Below, in pieces: positions 777 to 63,994 of a stretch of 64,000 nucleotides of DNA. The DNA comes from Tubulanus polymorphus (Eukaryota > Nemertea > Palaeonemertea > Tubulaniformes > Tubulanidae). Within the stretch, counting starts at the first letter, position 1, and every line of letters starts with the position of its first letter. The stretch lies in NCBI RefSeq assembly GCF_964204645.1, contig NC_134029.1:16820450-16884449 (forward strand), in the 5' to 3' direction. Position numbers and translations under genes: made by a program. The notes below the pieces were generated by a model, which worked only from the letters and a program-made list of their open reading frames with translations, made no database searches and was not told where the DNA came from.

Positions 777-3700
777 GTTGAAATTCAGGAAGATGCTCTC
801 CTGAATTCAAACGTCATTGAACAGTTAGTGTTGAACGTTGATGAAGAAACTTGGAAGAAATGGAGAGAAAAGCGTTCTAATCAGACATTGACTACGACTA
901 ATCAAAATGGTACGGGTATAACCAATTTGTCGCGAGGAATGGGACCATTCAATAGGATCCAGTTCTCAGTTAACCTACTTGAGTTAACCCAGTGAAAATC
1001 AACTGTTCTCGAAAGCTATGTCTAACTCTAATTCACATCTGTGGGTTCAGGCTCCTGGGGCTGGTTCCTTAGTCAAGACTTAAGACCAAAAGTGGTCTGT
1101 TAGATTGGCTATAGAACTAAATTGGTCTTAGAATGGTCTTAAGTCCAAGCCCTCACGGAGTCAGGGAATTCTGACATTTTCTGAATGAAAATCGGGAGAT
1201 CTGAAACAGACCTCAGTAATTTTTCTGAGGCTTTGTGCTTCACAGCTGTCTCTTTGAATTTCTGGAAAATAGCAAAGTTAGAGAGAAACAATTTGACAAG
1301 TATGGTCCGTGTCTAATTAGAGAGTGTGGCACTGGCTTAACACATTCATGTGATCTTCGCTAATGTCTCTGTTTTTATGCCGGTGACAATGGCACATTGA
1401 GCCTCAGTGAGGAAACAGCCCTTACCGATGACATCTTTTATAATTGAATCGAGGAATTTTTAGTCGGGAGTCAGGGAAAAGTCAGATTTGCGTCACAAGT
1501 TGGGGCGTAGGTCGGTTGTGACACGATTGTCAACGACTGTGTGTGACTATTTGCTCCCAGTCGCAAGAGCGCGTAGGTCGGTTGCGACAGTCGCCGAAAG
1601 TAGAACATGTGCGACTCATTGCGACTGGCTTTGCTGGCAGTCGCAACCCGTCGCTGGCAGTTGCAAGGTAGCGTAGGTTGGTTGGTCGCTGCAACGCGAT
1701 CGTTGCTGCCGGTAAAAATGAGTTGCAAAGTTGCAAGACCGACCTACGCCCCGCTTAAGAACCCTGTTGCTGCGTGTACGAATGCGTGTGTTTACCATTA
1801 AGTTATGGGTGAAAAATTGATTTGATTAATGAATTCAATATGAAATTGTGTAAATCTGTTTTCCACGTATTTGGGTTGCGCTTCATAGTGCCAGTCATTT
1901 AGGCGCCATTATCATTTTAAAGGAACACAAACTTAATGATTGCGTTATAATCACACCCGCCTGGTATCATTAATGAACTTAAAGTTATCACAGTGCCACA
2001 AACTTACCGTAAAAACCGGCGTATAAGTCTACGCGGCGTATAAGTGGAGGTCGATTTTTAGACCTACATTTTATGATTTTAACATATATCCGGCTTATAA
2101 GTCGAGTCCCGTCTCTTAGAAGAATAATTACTAGTATCATTGTATTGAATAGTTTGTTTTGATAACGATGTGTGCCTTCATGCACGCGGCCACATGTCAG
2201 CCTGATTGCTGCTGTGTGTTAATCAATAGACTGTTACACACACTCAGGTATAATACACTACCATACAGTGATACAGTAGTGTGAGTCACATGCTATATAT
2301 AGCCTAATGTATTAAGCGCTGCTATGAGCGCGCATATATGAATACATCGTTTTAAATAAAGCTGTGTCAAAATGAAAGAAGTTTTTTTCATTAAATAACT
2401 TTATTTATCATGAATAATTATTCAAACTGTTAAAGCACTGTTATAGTCTTTTTTGTCTGGTAGAATCAATATTTCTTGTGACCTGAAAATACTTCGTAGA
2501 AAACTGTACTCGGCGTATAAGTCGAGGTCAATAATTTAGTGGTAAAATCAAGGGTTAAAAACTCGACTTATACGCCGGTTTTTACGGTATCTGTAATTGA
2601 TCAAATACGGTATATTGGCGCTTTTCACAAATTCGATATCAATTTCATTTTAATCAGTCAAAAACAAGCCTCAGTTAATGCAGATGACTATGAGCATTCA
2701 TAAAACTATGAAGATGCATCATTATAGTAACCACTTAGTCTCTCATTAGTAACTTATCAATATTTGGTGCTGTGTATTATTTTGATGAGAGTTAGTAGGT
2801 CTTACCCTGTCACTGCAGTGGAACTGAATTTTGATAGATTTCTATATGATTCCTACCAATATTAAGGATATTGTTGGTGCTTCATAGACTTCTAGAAATA
2901 TCATACAAGGCACACGTCCCTGGTAAAAAGGACGAGTTGGTTTGTTATGGTTGAATGAACAAACTTTCATCTTTGGCAAAATTTGACCACTGAATATTTT
3001 TTTTTTCTTTTTTTGGTTATGGTTACAGTAGATATGCCACCAGACAGTCATCAAAGATTGTCTATACCGGATTATCAGACTACTATTGATGATGTGATTG
3101 ATAGATTTACGACATCCTCAACTGCATCAGCTGATGGCGAAGTTCTTTTGAATGTTCAACCAGTTGAGGAACATTTAGAAATGCAGTCAGATGACAAAAA
3201 ACGTCCGCTTGATAAATCTGACTGTTTTGGTAAGTTACAATGCAAATGATTATTGAGAATTTAGAGTTTGAATCTTGGATTAAGGTACTGGCACATACCA
3301 GATGGTGCACCAATAGTTATGCATAGTGAAAATTGGTTCAGTATGGATGAAATTTGGACTGGATTTTTAGGCTCCCAAATTCAAATAGGATCAAACAAGT
3401 CATCGAGGAGATGTATAAAATTGCTTTTCCACTAGGTGTATGAAATATACCATATATGAAATATGAAATCTATATAATAGATTTCACCGAAAAATTATTT
3501 ACTGATAATAAAATTTGATTCAAAATTCATTAAAATGTAGAAATTCAAGCAGCACGGTAACTGCAAAACCACTTGCGAACCTGATGAATCCTCACTTGCC
3601 ACGGTAGCGGTGCTGGTACCTCATTGTGGTCGGTGTCTCTTAAGCGTTTAATATGTTTGCCTGTTTCAGGGTCAGACTCACATGAGACACGACCACTATT

Positions 3701-4853
3701 TCTTAAACCCGGCGATAATAGGAATGAAAATCAACTGAATTCGTTGAGGCCAGAATCACAAACGATTCGGTGTAGTTTGTGCGAGGAGACGTTCAAAAGT
3801 CGCGTTGCTTTACAAAACCATGAACATGAGCGACATAAACTTGGTGATGACTTCGTTTGTCATTTTTGCCAAAAAATCTTCTCTCGCCGACCGAATTTAA
3901 AATTGCATTTGAAAACTCACACCGGCGTGAATTTGTTCGCGTGCGACCGTTGTGATAAAAAATTTCCGACTTCGTGTAATTTGAAGCGCCACCTGTTGAC
4001 GCATACGGGTAGTAAACCTTATCAGTGTGCATCGTGCGGAAAGCAATACCGTCAGTTTATCAGTCTTCAGACTCACGAGCGTCAATGCCACACCGGAGAA
4101 CGTCCGTTTATTTGCACCTCGTGTCCAAAAACGTTCACGAGCGCTGCTTATTTGAAAAATCATTCGAAAATTCATTCCGAACCGGATAAAAGCGAAAATG
4201 ATAGAAAAGCGAAATCGAGTGGTTCTAAGAGCGAAGTAGGTTGTAAATTGTGCCCTCGCAAATTCAGTAATCAGAAATATTTAGATATACACACACGGTG
4301 GTTACATCCCGATGTGGCACCGCCTTGCAGGGAAAAAATTCACGAATGCAACGAATGCGGCAAGCGTTATTCACAAAAGGGTCCGTTAATAGTTCACATG
4401 CGACGTCACTCCGACCTGAAACCATTTCTATGCGAAACGTGCGGGAAACGCTTTTACACGAGGAATAACTGTGTGATTCACGCTCGTTCGCATTCGGGGG
4501 AACAGCCCTATAAATGCGACGAATGCTCGAAACTTTTCAGCAGTTCTTACAATTTACAACGTCATAAACTGCTCCACTCTGGATTGAAGCCGTATTCGTG
4601 TAAACTCTGCGATCGTTCCTTTACGCAAGCGAGTAATTTGAAGACTCACCTGAAAACTCATTCTAAAGATGAGTTTTCCGGCGTAAAAATCTCGACGTCA
4701 ACGGTACCCAGTAGCAGGGAGGATGATATCGTTAATCGATTGTTGTTCGAAGCTTGGAATCCGTTGAATTTTCAACAGAATCCAATTATTTTAACTTCTC
4801 ATCAACTCGATGTTTTATCTGATTCACAACTCAATCCGACAGATTCTGTTTAA
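777..4853 (+). CDS. C2H2 zinc-finger protein, 5'-partial, three exons (777-909, 3029-3229, 3670-4853)
   Basis: Likely a nuclear DNA-binding protein. Exon 777-909 is open (VEIQEDALL...) and ends in phase 1 before GTACGG. Exon 3029-3229 is acidic and polar, phase 1 at both ends, with a GTAAGT donor. The terminal exon opens after TTTCAG at 3669 and runs in frame to TAA at 4851-4853. The joined partial protein is about 505 aa. The last exon holds ten C2H2 fingers from about 3771 to 4665, with TGEKP-like linkers such as HTGVNLFAC, HTGSKPYQC and HTGERPFIC. The upstream methionine lies outside the window. An ATG at 3624 gives a longer uninterrupted frame, but phase and the acceptor support splicing at 3670. 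No KRAB, BTB or SCAN domain is visible. Exon 3029-3229 could equally splice to the second finger exon at 7711. Orthology is not assigned, because arrays of this kind are not diagnostic. Confidence 0.85.
1502..1752. mobile_element. Short TIR element (MITE-like), about 250 bp
   Basis: Perfect 14-bp inverted ends: GGGGCGTAGGTCGG at 1502-1515 and its complement at 1739-1752. The interior repeats GTCGCAAC/GTTGCAAG-type motifs on both strands, so every frame here is a shadow ORF. It lies in the intron between exons 777-909 and 3029-3229. The superfamily is not identified. Confidence 0.6.
2005..2589. mobile_element. TIR DNA element, 585 bp, no transposase
   Basis: The ends are inverted repeats of about 24 bp: the left starts TACCGTAAAAACCGGCG and the right is its complement ending at 2589. 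Further copies of the GGCGTATAAGTCGA motif occur just inside both ends. There is no coding capacity, so this is a non-autonomous copy in a zinc-finger gene intron. Confidence 0.75.
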
Positions 4854-7191: not shown

Positions 7192-7710
7192 CCCCCCGTT
7201 CTAATTCCGGAATTTTGGTACTTTGGCCCTAGCATCTCTGCTCCTTTGATTAACTTAATTTGTAGACCTTTTTAACTCTTTCAGTGAATTTATTCAAATT
7301 CTTGCATGAAAATGTGAATTTATACCCCCTATTGCCCCCCCTGCCCCTAGGCCTATAATCACAAAAATATTTGGCTGCTCCGTGACTTTGATTGTGCCTA
7401 AAAAGGTCATTTTTTGTCTGAATTCTCAGGCTTTTGGCTCTTTTAAAACCCAGTTTCAAGGATTGTTGGTTACTGTAGTGTATTAGTTCACCAGGGGGTA
7501 CTGAAAATGGAAATTGTCAAGCATTTTGTGATCCATGGTGTCCCTGGCCCCTTTTTGTCATATCCACCTGCTCTTAAAAAATTCCAGCTGTGGCCTGCAT
7601 CCTAGCCTGAAAAATGAATCCTGATTTGAAATGTTGATCTTTTTCAATGGAGCACAATAAAGATTTAACTGGGTGCCATATGATTTAAAGTTTTTTTTTC
7701 TATATTTCAG

Positions 7711-8747
7711 ATAAAGATGATGAAGAAAGTGTGCATGTTTCAAAAAAGCGTCGAAATGAATCTGTGAATCAGCGTGAAAATCAGTTCATTTCGAATCAAT
7801 CCGAAAATGATTCCCTCATGAGATCTATTATTAAACGGGTTCGAGCTGGAAAATCGGACATCGCCACTGATGATGCCGACGATTTTGTCTGTCAGACATG
7901 CAGTAAATCTTTCGCCTTTCGCACTGATTTAGAAGAACACGAATCGAGCTGTCGGGACTGCTTTACCTGTGAAGATTGCGGTAAACTGTACAAAACAGCG
8001 AAATCTCTATCGTTTCATCAGCGAATTCATCGGGGCGAAGGATTTCAATGCAAGGAATGCGATAAAGTATTCCCGCGTCGGGAATATTTAAAAGATCACA
8101 TGCGGATACACACGGGAGAAGTACCGTATAAGTGTAGCGAGTGTTCGGCTATGTTTCGATCACGCAGCCATAGAACGAAACACATGCGTACGAAACACTC
8201 GAACGAGAAACCGTACGTCTGCAAGGTGTGCAACAAGGCGTTCATCGCATTGTACATGCTGAAATCGCATTTCGTCTCGCATACGCAAGTGAAAAAGTAT
8301 CGCTGCGAAATTTGTAACCAGACATTCGGATTGGTCGAGAATATACGACGACACATGAAGATCGTTCACGCCAAGGCTCGCGAACACAAATGTCCCAATT
8401 GCCATCGTTCGTTTCAGTTTAATTATTTGCTTAATAAACACGTGAACGATTGCCATGGAATTAAAACCGAGGAATCTGTGGCCGCAATAGGTGATGATGA
8501 ATCGATGGATGTACCGTTGCGAGTCCGGTGTCCGAGAATTATTGCTCGGCCGGATAAATCGCGGTCCGAGCGTAGGTTGGAACCGAAGCCCCTGCAGCTT
8601 GTCGTTAATGACCCGGATATGATTCTAGAATCGGTTGACAATGTCAACAAAAACCAAGCTTTGTATTTGATTCAGATGCCGGATGGACAATTACAGGTTT
8701 CAGCTACTGAAGATACTGATGATTCACAGAAATTCCTCATCGCTTAA
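7711..8747 (+). CDS. Seven-finger C2H2 terminal exon (second product of the zinc-finger locus, or paralogue)
   Basis: Opens after a strong acceptor (poly-T then TATATTTCAG at 7701-7710). The first two bases complete a split codon, so entry is phase 1 and the frame reads (D)KDDEESVHVSKK. It runs 344 codons to TAA at 8745-8747. There are seven C2H2-type fingers from about 7890 to 8455. The first is degenerate: its last ligand is Cys (HESSC) instead of His. The C-terminal tail ends with LYLIQMPDGQLQVS. An internal ATG at 7731 would also give an ORF, but the acceptor and acidic lead-in argue for a spliced exon. No separate 5' exon was found between 4854 and 7710. Exon 3029-3229 ends in phase 1 and joins this exon in frame, so alternative terminal exons are plausible. 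A tandem duplicate with an unseen promoter is the other reading. Confidence 0.8.
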
Positions 8748-17029: not shown

Positions 17030-20000
17030 CTGACTCGGCAATATACACAGAACTCTAACACATCCGCAGGCGCTTATATTGTCAGCCTCACATCTTCAAT
17101 CCAAATTAATTTATATTTAGTATAATATTTTTGACAATATATGCATTAAATGGTGAGCCACAGGGCCATTGGACCTTTATCTAAGTTGCGAACCTAAAAT
17201 AAAACAGGATTGGCTAATAATGACATCGACTAAGCTGTGCACTCTGGCTAGTGTGGCAGGGTTTCGTACCCTGGCCACTCTCGATGCCATCAGGTTTAAA
17301 TCCCTGCCGGGGAGGATGGTCTTTCACTGACACCTGTATTAAATAAGTTGAAATGGACATAAAGGTTGTGGTTCAACTTGTGAAATGAAGATCCCATCAC
17401 ACAGCCAACGGAAGCAATCTGATTGGTAGGACATTACGGAACTGCCTTTGCTGAGCCCGTATTAGTAACAACATTCTGAAGAGGAGGGGCAGTGGGTTAA
17501 CCTGAATTGTTTGAAATAATGGTGGAATCCAGGGCATATTCAAAAGGTTAACAGTTGAGCAAAATTTGAAAAAATACTGAAATCATTAGAAACTAATGAA
17601 GTATGTCATAACCGTTCCACAGCATGTTTCATTGTGCCTTTTCTTAGAAATTTTGGTCACAACTAACGTTTCAAGGCTTCTGAAATGGACTTTTCTTTTG
17701 ATGGAATAGTCTTGATTTAATTAATCCGAGTGCCTTGGACAACTCACTGCTGATAAATTCAAATTGATATTTAATTCCATTTTCTCCTCGGAATTGGAGT
17801 AGACATATCGTAATTAGAAAATTAGTTCCAGACATTGGAGAGGTTGAACAATTCGGATAAAGGTGAAGTAACGGGTGACGGTGATTATTTGTAAATGTTC
17901 CAGCTCGCCGAATGATCGAAGAGACAGAAGACGTGGTGGAGGACGCAGTCGGGATAGGGATAGAGACCGTGGCACAGATAGTGGAGGCGAAGCTAAAGAA
18001 GTTCGTACGCGCAGAGCGTTTATTTGTAATCTACCATATGATGTTTCCTGGCAGGATTTAAAAGATTTGTGCAAACAAGAAGGTAAGTTAGTTCTATAGC
18101 CTGATGCATGTTTTTGCATGTTCTTGAAATTTAATTGATTTCTTAATCTTACAACTAACTGAACTATTTTATTTGTGCTATTCAGTTGGTGATGCTTACG
18201 TTGAAGTCTATGATGAAAAAGGGAAATCCACAGGCTGCGCGTAGGTTTTTCTAGAAAAGTTTGGTTTTTAGTTTTTCACTTGTGGACTTTTTCTGACAGT
18301 TGAATTTATATTTCTAGGGCAGCAGAATTCCGAGATGTTGAAACGTGTAAAAAAGCCATTGAAAATCTTCACAGGAAGGAATTAAAAGGACGATTAATTG
18401 TTGTCAGGGAGGTTCGTATTAACAGTAATTTCTCAAGATAATTCAGTATCCGGGAATTAATTCTGACTTATTGCAGGCCTAATGTTTGTGAAAATACACT
18501 TTGATTAATATGTAGGACCTGAGGGTTTTATTTGATCTATAATTGAGCAAGATTCAAATTTTTTGGTTTCCATTTAGTTCGATAAGGGTAAAACCATGCT
18601 TAACCCTTAACTGGCTTGAAGTATTTTTTGCCCTGTTAGTGATTTTGGACCTTGCAAGGGGAAAACATAATAACTCAGAAGATATGAGGGATAACCCAAT
18701 ATTGTATGTATTTTATGAACGCTCTTTTCACAAACTTTCGAATGGTACCAAGTTTTCAAACTTTGGGGGTTACCTTTAGGGTCTGACTTCAAGGTCAGAG
18801 ATCCCAAGGTCATCCAGAAGAACCTAGGATAAATTCTTTGCAAGGTATAGGTTCATCAAAATTGGTGGTAGTTACATGGATAAATGAGACATCAATTTGA
18901 GGATTAGGAGACGGTTCGTAGCCACATAATGAGGGCAGTACTGTCCCCTGAATAGCGAAATTGGGGGGGGGGGGTTTAAAATATGATTACAGAATAATTA
19001 GTTTCGTAAACAGACTGCAGGAGGCGCCATGTCTCGGTGGGATGGCAGAGATGCCTCGAGTACCCATCAGCGTAAGAAAAATTGGTTAGACTGCCACTGG
19101 ACATATGATGGCCATCTAGTGACCTTTTTGGTCTGAATTCTTAAACCTGTAGCTTGCCACTTGTCATTGGAATTTGTTATGGGTTTTTTTTGGGCAGGTG
19201 GGTTTTCGGGATCAGTCAATTATCACATAATTGGCGGCTATCTTAATGTCATCAGTCCTAAATTCTAGGTGGAAGAAAATAATATGAGCAGGTTTTAACT
19301 TGAATGTATAGTCTTGTTAATTGATTATCAGTCATCGAAAGCATTTCATGGGATCACTCTATTGTTCTTGCCACCAGGGGAGTTGAATATTGAATCATAT
19401 ACCTAAGTGTGACAAGTGGGTTTCGAGTCCTACTGGCTGCTTACAGTGTGCGTCGGGTGGTTAAATGAATAATCCAATAGGGTTAGGCTTAAGAAACCAA
19501 GATCAAGCGACGTTAAGTCAGAACAAACAAAAGAACAAACAAATAAACAAACAAGCTTATTGTATTATTGCGTAGGCAGCGAACGGGGGACTTTGTATCC
19601 GCCTCCGTCCATCCGCATGAGCTTGTGAACGCGATTCAAGAAGAACCGTTGATCGCAGGACTATGATATTACACAGTATGATTACCCCTAGGGAGAGGAT
19701 GTGCCCTATTGATTTTGGGGTCAAAGGACCAAAGGTCAAGGTCACTACAGGTCATTCATGTAAAACGTGATTCAAGAACCGTTGATAGCAGGACCATGAT
19801 ATTACGTAGTATGATTACCCCTAGGGAGAGGATGTGCCCTATTGATTTTTGGGTCCAAGTACCAAAGGTCAAGGTCACTACAGGTCATTCATGTGAAACC
19901 TTGTGAACGTCATTCAAGAAGAACCGTTGATAGCAGGACCATGATATTATGTAGTATGATTAGCCCTAGGGAGAGGATGTGCCCTATTGATTCTGGGCTC

Positions 20001-23000
20001 CAAGGATCAAATGTCAAGGTCACTTCAGGTCATTCATGTGAAACCTTGTGTCGTGAATGTGATTCAGAAAGAACTGTTGATAGCAATACAATGATATTAC
20101 ATCGCATGATTACCCCTAGGGAGAGGATGTGCCCTATTGATTTTGAGGAAAAAGGTCAAGGTCACTAGATATCATTCATATGAAACCTTGTAAACACGAT
20201 CCAAGAAGAACCATTGATAACAGAACAATGCTATTTCATAGTATGATTACCCCTGGGGAGAGGATGTGCATTGGTGATTTTGGAGTTCTAGGGTCAAAGG
20301 TCAAGGTTGGTAGACGTCTTTTGCCTAAAACCCTGTAAACTCAATTCTTAAATAACCATTCATAGCAGAAAAATGATATTTCATAGTATGGTTATCCCTG
20401 GATACACTCATAATTTTTCTATACAAAAGATTAGTGTCTTCGGGGGTCATTCATTCCCTACTGGCTATCGTGGGGGACAAAGATACGTAGTATCGAATTG
20501 CTTTGTTTATATTGGTACCAATGCATATTTTGTAAGTTGAAGCTCATGACATGTTCTATGGTTTTGGTTTTTAAGGTAACTGGCGGCATTGAATATTGAA
20601 TTAGTCGCATTGTTGAGCATTTCCTCTTGCCAAGTAGGCATGGTGTCTCAGGACCCCTAGTTATGTATGGGTTGAGGCAATAATTTGCAGGGGCTGGAAT
20701 ATCTTGAAAAGATGGTGTGCACTTTAATTTTCAGGAAACTCCAGCGGATAGACGAAGGTTTGATCGATCAGAAAAGGGTCGTCGCGGAGATGACCGATCC
20801 TCAAGATCCAGTCGAATGGAACGTCGTCCATTGATGGACACGGATTCAACTCAGCCACTGAATACGCACGGAATCAATCCACAAATATTAAAACAGTTGA
20901 ATATTGAAGGTCCCTTGGTTAATACTGTATTCGTAGCGAATGTAAGTATTCAGTATTAGTGAAGTAAGAATTAACTCATTTGTTAAATTCTGGAAATTTT
21001 ACAGTCTCATGGAACGTTTAGCTTAACAAACTGTTTACAGGGTCCCAACGATTCCTTGAAATCTCCTTCTAAACCAAAGATACTTTTCCAGGTCCTTGTA
21101 TAACCTTGAATTTGGAGAAATTGGCAATCAGAAAATTTTTAGGTTTTAAGCCTAGTTAGCAGTCAAAGGCCTTATACATGCAGATACCACTGAATTAATG
21201 GTTTACCAAAATAAACAGTACCGATTTAGAGCTGAGTACTGTAATTGGGATATGAAAGTGATACATACGCTCCTCGAAATTTGAAATTATCTCCTTGAAA
21301 ACTCCTTGAATTCTGGAATGACTGATCAAAAGGGACCTTGGTTTAACGAGTTCAGTTCTTCCAACAATTGCTGATAACAATTTTTCCTGTGATATTTACA
21401 GTTGGATTATAAAGTGGATGACAAAAAATTGGAAGAGATTTTCAAAATGGCTGGTAAAACAGTGAAAGCCGAGATAAAAAAGGACAAGGATGGAAATAGT
21501 CGAGGATTCGGAAGTGTTGAATTTGATCACCCAGTTCAAGCGGTTCAGGCTATCTGTATCCTTAACATAATGAATACACTTAATTCTTAACTCTCTATGA
21601 ACATCGTGTTTCGTACTGCAAGATGATTGCAAATTTGCAATTTTCACATGCTTCATTGAATAAGTTATAGAAGGTAGGGCATTTTCTTTTGGGCGCTAAC
21701 GTTATGATCGCCCATCATGGATACTTCTGTGATCGCTCTTTCGTTACTCCCGAGTAGGGGATATTATGCCCTATGGGTTTTCAAAATAAACTTCTGAGGT
21801 GATATTTCGTATTTCGTAGTGGTATAGCATGGTATTTCTATGTGTAGGTATCTATGGTGCGTATATTTTGTTGCGGTTAAACCACAATCGTTGAAATTTT
21901 TAGCTCATTCTATGCTTTATGATTGTGGTTAGTTCCAAGGCAATTGATTACCGCATTCATTCACCAAGGGGCATTGAATATTAGCAAGCATTTGTTAGAT
22001 TATCAATTAAGTGGGCACGGTGTGTCTGTGGACCTTTAGTTTCTGATCAAGATTGTGCGTGCCAGTGGAATTTAAAGTGCTACATCGTAAATCCCATGAA
22101 AAAGGCTTCTTCTGAAAGAAACTTTGCCCTGAAACCCTCAGATATCCAGTTTGTTTACTTAATTGATTTAAACCAGCTATGTTTAATGGTCAAACGCTAT
22201 TTGATCGCGCGATGGCTGTAAAAATGGATAAAGAAGCTCGTCCTAAAAAGCAAGAATTACCCAGCGGTTTGCAGGGAGTCGGTAAAGGTCTCGGTATAGG
22301 TGGTGCTCCAATCAATGATCCCAATGATATTTCAAGTGAGTGCAGTATCTTGAATATAACAAATATGAACTTAGTGTGTTGCGGTGCGATACAATGTATG
22401 TGTGCTTATTTACATAGGTAGCTTGAATACTATGAGTAACAGTATGAATATGAATATGGATAACATCGGTATGGGTATGGGTAAGTAGAAATTTAGTATA
22501 TACTATGGAAGCTACTTAAAACCTAACTTTATAGCCCACCCTCTAGCCAAAGGACCCGCTTTAACAAAAGCAAATTCTGGAATTTTGGCACAATGCTATT
22601 TACTTCTGTCAAAATATTTGGTAAATTTATTGTCGACATAACTAAATGATATTCAACCATAAATATTGGCAATTTGTGACAAAATATTAACATGTAATCA
22701 TGAAAAATATGTTGACTTAATATTTGGTTATTTATTTGTAGGCATGGGAACCGGAGGAAATATGGGTCTTGGCGCAATGAATATGGGAATGCCTGGAATG
22801 GGAATGAATAATTTACCAATGAATTCGAGCAGTCTCGGAGGAATGGGCAGTAATAGTATGTTAGGAATGCCCAGTATCAGTGATATGGGTATGAATCCTA
22901 GTTTACTCAATATGAACAACATGTCATCAGGGCTGTCGCTGGGCAGTTCTCTCGGAGCTGGGTCCGGTATGGGATCCGGAATGGGATCGTTGGGTTCAGG

Positions 23001-24828
23001 TATGGGATCGGGACTCGGCGGCAGTATGGGCAGCGGTTATGGCTCGGGCGGAATGGGTAACATGGATGGGTTACTCGGTAGCGGAGCGGCGATGAATAGT
23101 ATGAATATGGGATTATCCGGAGGTATGGGAAACATGAGAGGTAACCTAGGCGGTGGTGGAGGACTGAACAGAGAAAATACGACCATCATCGTCAGAGATG
23201 TAAGTATAAGTTATTTGTTCACCTGATATACAGTCCAAACTCAAGAAAATGTATTCTGTATAGCCGTACCTTGGCTGAATATTTTAGCCAGCCCTGGGTG
23301 TATCAACTGCTGGTCGGCTATGTCATTAATCACTATGGGAATTGCACTCAAATCATTCAAACCAATCTCTCTCAAAAGTTTCATAGAAATATTGGAATCT
23401 TATTTTTACACTCTGCTGGTTGGGACAAAATAGAAACTGTTTAGTTAGATTCATTCAACATAAGAATGTTCTTGACGTATTTAGTGAAAAACCCCCGAAT
23501 GATGGAAAAGCGCACCCAAGAGCCATCCATTTTGTTAGTACAAAACTGAGCATGTAAAAATATTGTCTATTTTATGATGGGTTTCACAGATGAACTATGT
23601 TATTGTCAATGTTTATTGCTAATAATGTCATTTTAACTTTGTTAGTCTCCATGACTCATAATTTTGGGTTATAGTATCGTAAAAGGCTCCAAAGATGGCA
23701 TAGCTGGAGTTTAGGAAACATTGAGTATGCAGGCTTATTAGTTGTTGTATTAAGCAAACTTGAAGTAGCTGGTCTGAGAATTCAATTTCATTCGGCAAAA
23801 AAGTTCCAATTCAACTATATTTGACATCAGAGGGAAATTTATGAAATCGATCTGAAATACTTGTTCCTGCAAGCCCACGAGTCTTTGTTACATAAGATAT
23901 GAACGTAGGAATGGTGTGAGTCAACAATTGGCATCAGTTTTCACAAAGAAGCACATTAATAGTTATCAAGTAGCTACTGTAGCTACGTGATAACTGTAGC
24001 CTACAGGCTGGCTGTAGTGTCCCTGGGCGATCTGAAAAAACGTAACCAATTCGCGATGAAATCGTTTTACCCTGCAGATTGATACTTAGCGTAGTATAGA
24101 TACAAAGCTAGCAATTTTGTCATCAGCCCTTTCCTGCTAGTTTTTTGGGGGTTTCCCAAGCGTTAATTTCCTTTGGCAGCTCGAAATAATTCCAAGAAAA
24201 CCACCGGCCTTTACACTATTAAAAATAAGAATGATGATTTTAAATTGCATCATCGGTGTATTGTTGTACCATTATTGTACGGTCTTTATCTATAGTTACC
24301 CTATACATACACGTGGCAGAATTTACGGGAGCGTTTCTGTGACTGCGGCGAAGTGAAATATGCTGAAATCAAGACTGAGAATGGAAAATCTCGCGGAATT
24401 GGAATAATTCGATTTGCTACATCGAAAGAAGCTATTCGTGCTGTCAGTATCCTTTATGTGTAGAAGTATTAGTTATTTATTTGAGATCTCAGATATTATG
24501 CTGGTTTATTCAACAATTTACATCCTAACTTGAATCATTTTGAACATTGGAGTGACCAGAGTATAAGATACCGGGGTAATGGAATTTAATTTACATTCTG
24601 TTGCGATGATTCTAAGATTTGTGTTTGAATGTTGAGATAATTCGACTTGAATGTATCTGAGAGGATGCGGGTCTACTGTGTTAAACAGCTGGCGTCTGAA
24701 AATTTTGAGAATACTTTGGTCTGCGTAATATGATGTCGCTGCATTTCTCCTTGACTGATATTTTTTTAGATTTGATGGATGGAAGCAGAATCGAAGGACG
24801 CGCCATTAAAGTTCGTTTGGATGAATAA
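13984..24828 (+). CDS. HNRNPM: hnRNP M orthologue (three-RRM RNA-binding protein), 12 coding exons, complete
   Basis: A nuclear pre-mRNA-binding protein. In vertebrates hnRNP M regulates alternative splicing. Exons: 13984-14072, 14391-14432, 17904-18082, 18186-18240, 18318-18411, 20735-20941, 21402-21555, 22177-22335, 22418-22480, 22742-23199, 24296-24446, 24770-24828. All phases agree and give 569 aa plus TAA. Residues 30-70 are RS/RD-rich. RRM1 is about 81-152 (RNP2 AFICNL 82-87, RNP1 KSTGCAAAEF 117-126). RRM2 is about 217-291 (VFVANL; NSRGFGSVEF). A Gly/Met/Ser-rich linker spans about 300-490. RRM3 is about 494-567 (IIVRDL; KSRGIGIIRF). The architecture and the MFNGQTLFDR...VKMD segment match vertebrate hnRNP M/MYEF2, but the linker is shorter and lacks the regular ERMG repeats. 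The start has A at -3. Introns after exons 7 and 11 have U12-type signals; the others are ordinary GT-AG. Confidence 0.93.
15815..16040 (+). mobile_element. tRNA-derived SINE, diverged
   Basis: GGGTTAGGG-like leader (15820-15890), then a tRNA-like part (GAGCTCGGTGGTCTTGTGG) with a weak B box (GGGTTGGAATCCCGCTC) and the tail CTCTGTTCTCCGCACTTTC. The same arrangement occurs at 30655-30925 and, in part, at 34845-35045. Lies in hnRNP M intron 2. Confidence 0.55.
16979..17028. repeat. TA dinucleotide microsatellite
   Basis: Near-continuous TA run with a single C interruption, in hnRNP M intron 2. Confidence 0.95.
17160..17319. mobile_element. Partial copy of the GATGCCATCAGGTT TIR family
   Basis: The end CGATGCCATCAGGTTTAAAT...GGGGAGGATGG (17282-17319) matches the right ends of elements 30153-30340 and 36317-36638. 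Upstream AAAATAAAACAGGATTGGCTAA-type sequence matches the interior of the latter. The left TIR is missing. Confidence 0.55.
19624..20410. repeat. Tandem repeat, about 142-bp unit, 5-6 diverged copies
   Basis: Units share GATTCAAGAAGAACCGTTGA, GATTACCCCTAGGGAGAGGA and AAGGTCAAGGTCACTACAGG. Unit starts are near 19627, 19768, 19902, 20051, 20189 and 20335. They lie in hnRNP M intron 5. Open frames across them are repeat artefacts. Confidence 0.8.
20420..22075. repeat. Two loosely similar dispersed-repeat segments (about 20440-20690 and 21690-22075)
   Basis: Both contain AGCTCAT...TTCTATG, GGCATTGAATATT and a GTGTCT...GGACC end. Similar fragments occur near the window start, 19320 and 43660. They look like old copies of one dispersed family. 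Exon 7 of hnRNP M (21402-21555) lies between them and is not part of it. Confidence 0.35.
21556..22176 (+). other. U12-type intron in RRM2 of hnRNP M
   Basis: The 5' splice site GTATCCTTAA matches the minor-spliceosome consensus RTATCCTT. A branch-like TTTACTTAAT lies about 15 nt before the AAACCAG acceptor. The intron splits Ser (T|CT) just before MFNGQ in phase 1. Inferred from consensus, not from transcripts. Confidence 0.75.
24447..24769 (+). other. U12-type intron in RRM3 of hnRNP M
   Basis: The 5' site GTATCCTTT is a perfect U12 match. A branch-like CTCCTTGACT ends about 15 nt before the acceptor. It splits Asn (A|AT) before LMDG in phase 1, the same domain position as intron 21556-22176 in RRM2. 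Confidence 0.85.

Positions 24829-29651: not shown

Positions 29652-63994
<34,343 letters not shown>

What the first reader, a model, noticed from the sequence alone, without database searches (positions are those of the whole stretch)
21556..24769. Two U12-type introns at the same place in RRM2 and RRM3 of the hnRNP M gene
Introns 21556-22176 and 24447-24769 both start GTATCCTT and have branch-like motifs (TTTACTTAAT, CTCCTTGACT) about 15 nt before the AG. Both are phase 1 and split the residue directly before the equivalent MFNG / LMDG motifs. Two rare-class introns at homologous domain positions suggest that the RRM was duplicated together with its intron. RRM1 has no intron there. If retained elsewhere, it links hnRNP M output to minor-spliceosome activity.
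Basis: partly seen in the sequence, partly recalled or inferred. Interest (0 to 1): 0.72.

Follow-up and report, generated by a model that had tools for sequence, protein, structure and literature searches.

The report
Paired U12 introns in hnRNP M
An animal gene for the RNA-binding protein hnRNP M has two introns of the rare U12 class at exactly matching places in its second and third RNA-binding domains, which is best explained by one ancient domain-plus-intron being copied inside the gene.

Summary
Introns 21556-22176 and 24447-24769 both begin GTATCCTT, end AG, are phase 1, and split the equivalent residue before MFNG and LMDG in RRM2 and RRM3 of an hnRNP M gene. The branch site is excellent in intron 2, only fair in intron 1. 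The genome carries U11 and U6atac RNAs; U12 and U4atac searches did not complete. New here: RRM2 and RRM3 share a second intron position (phase 0), and RRM1 shares neither. Of 43 other RRM exons compared, none has its best donor at that codon and phase, and one, SRSF10-like, has a convincing U12 donor, elsewhere. Duplication of a domain with its introns is the best explanation, though a tree cannot order the three RRMs. It is a new case of a known kind: human HNRNPM is already reported with a U12-type intron (one, PMC10853781), and genes with two U12 introns are known among ion channels (PMC2831892). Regulation through retention is untested.

The parts
21402..21555 (+). RRM2 middle exon, LDYKV...QAI(S)
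   Evidence: RRM_1 profile positions 6-61 (the match runs 14 nt into the intron)
21556..22176 (+). U12-type GT-AG intron 1, phase 1, between AI(S) and MFNG of RRM2
22155..22163 (+). branch-point motif TTACTTAAT, branch A 22162, 14 nt to intron end (fair match)
22177..22335 (+). exon carrying the end of RRM2 (MFNGQTLFDRAMAVKMD)
24296..24446 (+). RRM3 middle exon, LPYTYTW...RAV(N)
   Evidence: profile positions 6-57
24447..24769 (+). U12-type GT-AG intron 2, phase 1, between AV(N) and LMDG of RRM3; last coding intron
24747..24755 (+). branch-point motif CTCCTTGAC, branch A 24754, 15 nt to intron end (strong match)
24770..24828 (+). last coding exon with the end of RRM3 and TAA
20942..21401 (+). 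U2-type intron, phase 0, after RRM2 strand 1 (VFVAN|LDY)
23200..24295 (+). U2-type intron, phase 0, after RRM3 strand 1 (IIVRD|LPY): same place as in RRM2
18007..18411 (+). RRM1; introns 18083-18185 (phase 1) and 18241-18317 (phase 2), U2-like donors by eye, at places not shared with RRM2/RRM3

Best explanation
The gene is the hnRNP M orthologue (no second copy found) of an animal that keeps a minor spliceosome. An ancestral RRM with two introns, a U2-type intron after strand 1 and a U12-type intron before the xxG loop, was copied inside the gene and gave RRM2 and RRM3, each keeping both introns. The copying predates the split from the human lineage, because RRM2 pairs with human RRM2 and, less firmly, RRM3 with human RRM3. 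Full-length hnRNP M then needs two separate excisions by the minor spliceosome (U11 and U6atac pairing with AUCCUU, U12 with the branch site). Shown: splice signals, positions, phases, U11 and U6atac genes. Inferred: actual excision by the minor spliceosome, the duplication event. Predicted only: if intron 1 is retained a stop begins at its nt 33, if intron 2 is retained a stop begins at its nt 15, so weak minor splicing would lower hnRNP M.
For: Perfect GTATCCTT donors and branch motifs at 14 and 15 nt, U12 scores far above U2. Same codon and phase in both domains, and a second shared phase-0 intron position. None of 43 other RRM exons compared has its best donor at that codon and phase. hnRNP M RRM1-3 and human RRM2/3 form one group among 34 RRM rows (95/79, just short of the tool's star). 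U6atac 96.5 bits with AAAAGGAGAG; U11 98.1 bits, beginning TAAAAGGGC. Positive control: an SRSF10-like gene of the same genome has an AT-AC intron with U12 donor and branch TCCTTAAC. Human HNRNPM has a ZRSR2-bound U12-type intron (PMC10853781, passage and section 15). At most one U12 gain in 18 metazoan genomes (PMC2831892, conclusions). Minor introns lean to phase 1 in animals and plants (PMC10639083, passages).
Against: The intron 1 branch motif is only fair. The tree puts RRM1 weakly beside RRM3 (88/76) and holds the two RRM3 rows together at only 83/8, which would need loss of both introns in RRM1. [quoted passage not shown] The human paper speaks of one U12-type intron, not two. The two introns show no DNA similarity (local score 22, shuffled mean 21.2), expected for old copies but no help. 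U12 and U4atac RNAs were not searched successfully. No RNA evidence. No outgroup gene could be examined.
Confidence: 0.72

Rival explanations
1. Both introns are U12-type but arose independently: the codon before the xxG loop of an RRM is a favoured insertion site, and two U12 introns landed there separately.
For: Three other RRM exons (L045, L028, L031) have U2-type donors within about one codon of this site, so the neighbourhood does attract introns. PMC6865273 counts 55 candidate minor-intron gains (passage).
Against: Those three are phase 0 and U2-type, not phase 1 U12. PMC2831892 finds at most one U12 gain. RRM2 and RRM3 share a second intron position as well.
Confidence: 0.13
2. Intron 1 is no longer purely U12-type: it is a former U12 intron with a decayed branch site, or is spliced by both machineries, while intron 2 is a true U12 intron.
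For: TTACTTAAT scores 6.5 bits and is reached at 2.8% of AGs in the window; use of some sites by both spliceosomes is stated in the abstract of PMC10853781 (listing).
Against: The intron 1 donor is a perfect U12 match and scores 0.7 as U2 against 8.2-9.1 in four other introns; there is no pyrimidine tract before its AG (by eye).
Confidence: 0.13
3. The GTATCCTT donors are coincidental and both introns are U2-type.
For: GTATCCTT is not enriched genome-wide: 5,577 copies against 6,487 for the reversed pattern.
Against: About 2e-4 per GT, twice, at homologous places, with branch motifs at U12 spacing.
Confidence: 0.02

Closest known systems
U12-type intron of human HNRNPM (ZRSR2 CLIP, PMC10853781; passage and section 15 seen)
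   Same: Same gene; a U12-type intron bound by ZRSR2 beside U2-type introns.
   Different: The human gene is described with one U12-type intron; which RRM it lies in is not stated in the text seen. Here there are two.
Voltage-gated sodium and calcium channel alpha subunit genes with two U12-type introns (PMC2831892 passages; Wu and Krainer 1999 not held)
   Same: Two U12-type introns in one gene; that these genes are built of duplicated domains is established knowledge, recalled.
   Different: Membrane channels with several paralogues; that the two introns sit at homologous repeat positions is recalled, not read.
U12-type introns shared between proto-eukaryotic paralogues (PMC9120149 passages; PMC9887622 passages)
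   Same: A U12-type intron position kept through a duplication.
   Different: Between genes, before the last common eukaryote ancestor; here between domains of one gene, of unknown age.
Srsf10 minor AT-AC intron (PMC7244321 passages)
   Same: Minor intron in the gene of a splicing regulator; its expression follows minor-spliceosome level.
   Different: AT-AC ends and a competing U2 5' site. No such competition was looked for in hnRNP M.

Membership tests
U12-type (minor) intron, intron 1 | 5' site [AG]TATCCTT | tested here: met
   GTATCCTTA, 14.4 bits against U2 0.7
U12-type (minor) intron, intron 1 | TTCCTTAAC-like branch site close to the 3' end | tested here: inconclusive
   TTACTTAAT, 6.5 bits, 14 nt; 2.8% of AGs do as well
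U12-type (minor) intron, intron 2 | 5' site [AG]TATCCTT | tested here: met
   GTATCCTTT, 15.8 bits against U2 0.7
U12-type (minor) intron, intron 2 | TTCCTTAAC-like branch site close to the 3' end | tested here: met
   CTCCTTGAC, 12.8 bits, 15 nt; 0.09% of AGs do as well
U12-type (minor) intron, both | Host genome has the minor spliceosome RNAs | tested here: inconclusive
   U11 and U6atac found over cut-off; U12 and U4atac did not complete (for example)
U12-type (minor) intron, both | Excision depends on the minor spliceosome | not testable with these tools
   no RNA data
hnRNP M | RRM2 and RRM3 closest to hnRNP M | tested here: met
   RRM2: best PDB match 2do0 hnRNP M, 52 of 77 identical. 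RRM3: hnRNP M 2dh9 and 2dgv at about 78 bits, second to a nucleolin entry whose 89.3 bits sum four domains of at most 33.8. Tree: RRM2 pair 100/99, RRM3 pair only 83/8
hnRNP M | three RRMs with a Met/Gly-rich linker before RRM3 | tested here: met
   read from the sequence; Pfam RRM_1 with two stretches in the RRM2-RRM3 part; RRM1 named by its place and its grouping, not by a database match

The most novel reading that the evidence does not exclude
Early animal hnRNP M carried a U12-type intron in each of two RRMs copied from one minor-intron-bearing RRM. This puts a double minor-spliceosome gate on a splicing regulator: intron 1 retention would make a transcript prone to decay and intron 2 retention a protein lacking the end of RRM3. 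Humans later lost or converted one of the two.
Probability: 0.3. Interest if true: 0.55.

Novelty: new member of a known kind. Interest (0 to 1): 0.4.

Why it matters
A minor intron kept through a domain duplication gives an internal control: the same intron, same phase, same gene and same expression level, but two copies free to be lost, converted to U2 or degraded separately. That lets U12 loss and U12-to-U2 conversion be compared without gene-to-gene differences. It also makes hnRNP M, like Srsf10, a splicing regulator whose making may follow minor-spliceosome activity.

Tried and rejected
Looked for a paralogue that might also carry the introns: the RRM2+RRM3 query found four exons of this gene plus two weak matches to other RRM genes (33% identity), so no second hnRNP M was found; the tool scores only its best candidates (28 here). 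Looked for leftover similarity between the two introns: none. Considered that the position is simply a common RRM intron site: three other exons have U2 donors nearby but not at the same phase. L040 scored 9.2 as U12, but its frame runs on for the rest of the domain, so I take it as a false donor; L076 and L077 (GTATCTTAA, 4.7) lack C at +6. Ten literature searches: in the listings and in the passages I opened, none says which human HNRNPM intron is U12-type or reports two there; most listed papers were not opened, supplements were not readable, and the library holds only open-licence papers.

Errors mended on the way: one search read 15 loci on the wrong strand, put right; one search used two wrong exon edges (in RRM1 and near 22742), put right by reading and, and the RRM1 protein used is my hand reading of the exons; one search took one U2 intron one base too long at its 3' end (22742 for 22741), without effect on its donor score. 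An earlier count said 46 exons; one search printed 45 rows (43 others plus RRM2 and RRM3).

Survey limits: one search listed 150 RRM matches; I examined 72 (30 loci that came with the search, 40 fetched, RRM2 and RRM3); 78 were not examined. 27 of the 72 were dropped because the match ended outside profile positions 50-67 or held a stop. Donors were chosen by score and not checked against RNA; AT donors were scored with G in first place; some rows lie in long open frames without introns and some are near-identical copies (L057/L058, L076/L077).
Full report
What is there. The window lies in a 267.8 Mb genome of 77 contigs that the tool does not name; that it is an animal is inferred from its genes. 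On the + strand, from at least 18.0 to 24.83 kb, runs an hnRNP M gene. RRM2 reads VNTVFVANLDYKVDDKKLEEIFKMAGKTVKAEIKKDKDGNSRGFGSVEFDHPVQAVQAISMFNGQTLFDRAMAVKMD, 52 of 77 aligned residues identical to human RRM2; RRM3 is 35 of 75 identical to human RRM3. A search of the whole genome with RRM2+RRM3 returned six matches: four exons of this gene and two weak matches to other RRM genes. The start of the gene was not traced.

The two introns. 21556-22176 is GTATCCTTAACATAATG...TTTGTTTACTTAATTGATTTAAACCAG; 24447-24769 is GTATCCTTTATGTG...TTTCTCCTTGACTGATATTTTTTTAG. The branch motif of intron 2 scores 12.8 bits, reached at 0.09% of 6,647 AGs in the window; that of intron 1 scores 6.5 bits, reached at 2.8%. 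So intron 2 is a textbook case and intron 1 rests mainly on its donor.

Chance. 3 of 6,857 GTs in the window continue as ATCCTT, two of them these donors. Genome-wide there are 5,577 such sites and 6,487 of the reversed pattern, so the motif is not enriched as such; it is about 2e-4 per GT by the window's GT density.

Homologous place. Both introns are phase 1 and split the same aligned residue, S of AIS-MFNG and N of AVN-LMDG. RRM1 has introns elsewhere, phase 1 after CKQE and phase 2 after STGC.

Control set. Of 150 RRM matches in the genome I examined 72 and compared 45 (43 others plus RRM2 and RRM3). None of the 43 has its best donor at the same codon in phase 1. Nearest are U2-type phase-0 donors in L045 (same residue) and L028 and L031 (one residue on). 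One of the 43, L051, has a strong U12 donor, elsewhere in the RRM: an SRSF10-like gene (name recalled) with donor ATATCCTTTTCC, branch TCCTTAAC and acceptor AC, whose joining reads AYI(Q)FDDPKDAED. Mouse Srsf10 has an AT-AC minor 5' site in exon 2 (PMC7244321, passages); that it is the same place in the protein is recalled, not tested. It serves as a positive control that minor introns are kept in this genome.

Machinery. U6atac: three matches, 96.5, 93.5 and 40.5 bits; the two best have AAAAGGAGAG near the 5' end, the third lacks it. U11: one match, 98.1 bits, beginning TAAAAGGGC. U12 and U4atac searches did not complete, and minor-spliceosome proteins were not found or excluded (PF16021, unanswered).

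Origin. A tree of 34 RRM rows (29 from the genome survey, RRM1-3, human RRM2 and RRM3) puts the five hnRNP M rows in one group (95/79, just under the tool's star; bootstrap not settled), the two RRM2 rows together (100/99), the two RRM3 rows together only weakly (83/8), and RRM1, a long branch, weakly with RRM3 (88/76). Pairwise scores favour RRM2-RRM3 (105-134) over RRM1-RRM3 (83-112) and RRM1-RRM2 (57-59). Sequence therefore suggests that the three RRMs are copies of one another and that RRM2 was separate before the split from human; intron positions group RRM2 with RRM3. At most one U12 gain was found in 18 metazoan genomes (PMC2831892, conclusions), though another paper counts 55 candidate minor-intron gains (PMC6865273, passage). 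One U12 intron copied with its domain is the simplest history. I could examine no outgroup gene.

Working. If retained, intron 1 gives a stop codon that begins at its nt 33 and intron 2 one that begins at its nt 15. Intron 1 retention would leave four known junctions downstream and should be prone to decay; intron 2 is the last coding intron, so its retention would cut off the end of RRM3. These are predictions. Human HNRNPM shows ZRSR2 binding at its U12-type intron (PMC10853781, Figure 4 legend and section 15), named in the singular.

Verdict. Real, well placed and most likely two inherited U12-type introns from an intragenic RRM duplication. It is a new case of a known kind, of moderate interest.

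Noticed in passing
L051 (G000:C2:29859424-29863376), intron about bases 426-1637: SRSF10-like gene (name recalled) with an AT-AC U12-type intron inside its RRM; mammalian Srsf10 also has an AT-AC minor intron, the equal place being recalled.
   Followed up: partly
L045 (G000:C4:6092176-6096134): A LARP7-like RRM exon (name recalled) spans the same profile positions (6-57) as the hnRNP M RRM3 middle exon, but its downstream donor is U2-type and phase 0, two bases from the hnRNP M site.
   Followed up: no
L028 and L031: Two hnRNP R/Q-like RRM exons (name recalled) have U2-type phase-0 donors within about a codon of the hnRNP M U12 site.
   Followed up: no
window 32439-33320: Reading frame with a GIY-YIG domain (6e-6) behind a YVDD-containing stretch, which looks like part of a Penelope-like retroelement (reading recalled).
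   Followed up: partly
window 3588-4853 and 7689-8747: Two C2H2 zinc-finger reading frames upstream of hnRNP M.
   Followed up: partly
window 19600-20400: Diverged tandem repeats with CCTAGGGAGAGGATGTGCCCTATTGAT and GGTCAAGGTCACT between RRM1 and RRM2 (seen by eye).
   Followed up: no
window 53287-54700, - strand: Long tandem array that reads [13 protein letters not shown] over and over in open frame.
   Followed up: no
G000:C8:11654955-11668479: Cluster of PABP-like RRM matches (name recalled), several with stops inside.
   Followed up: no
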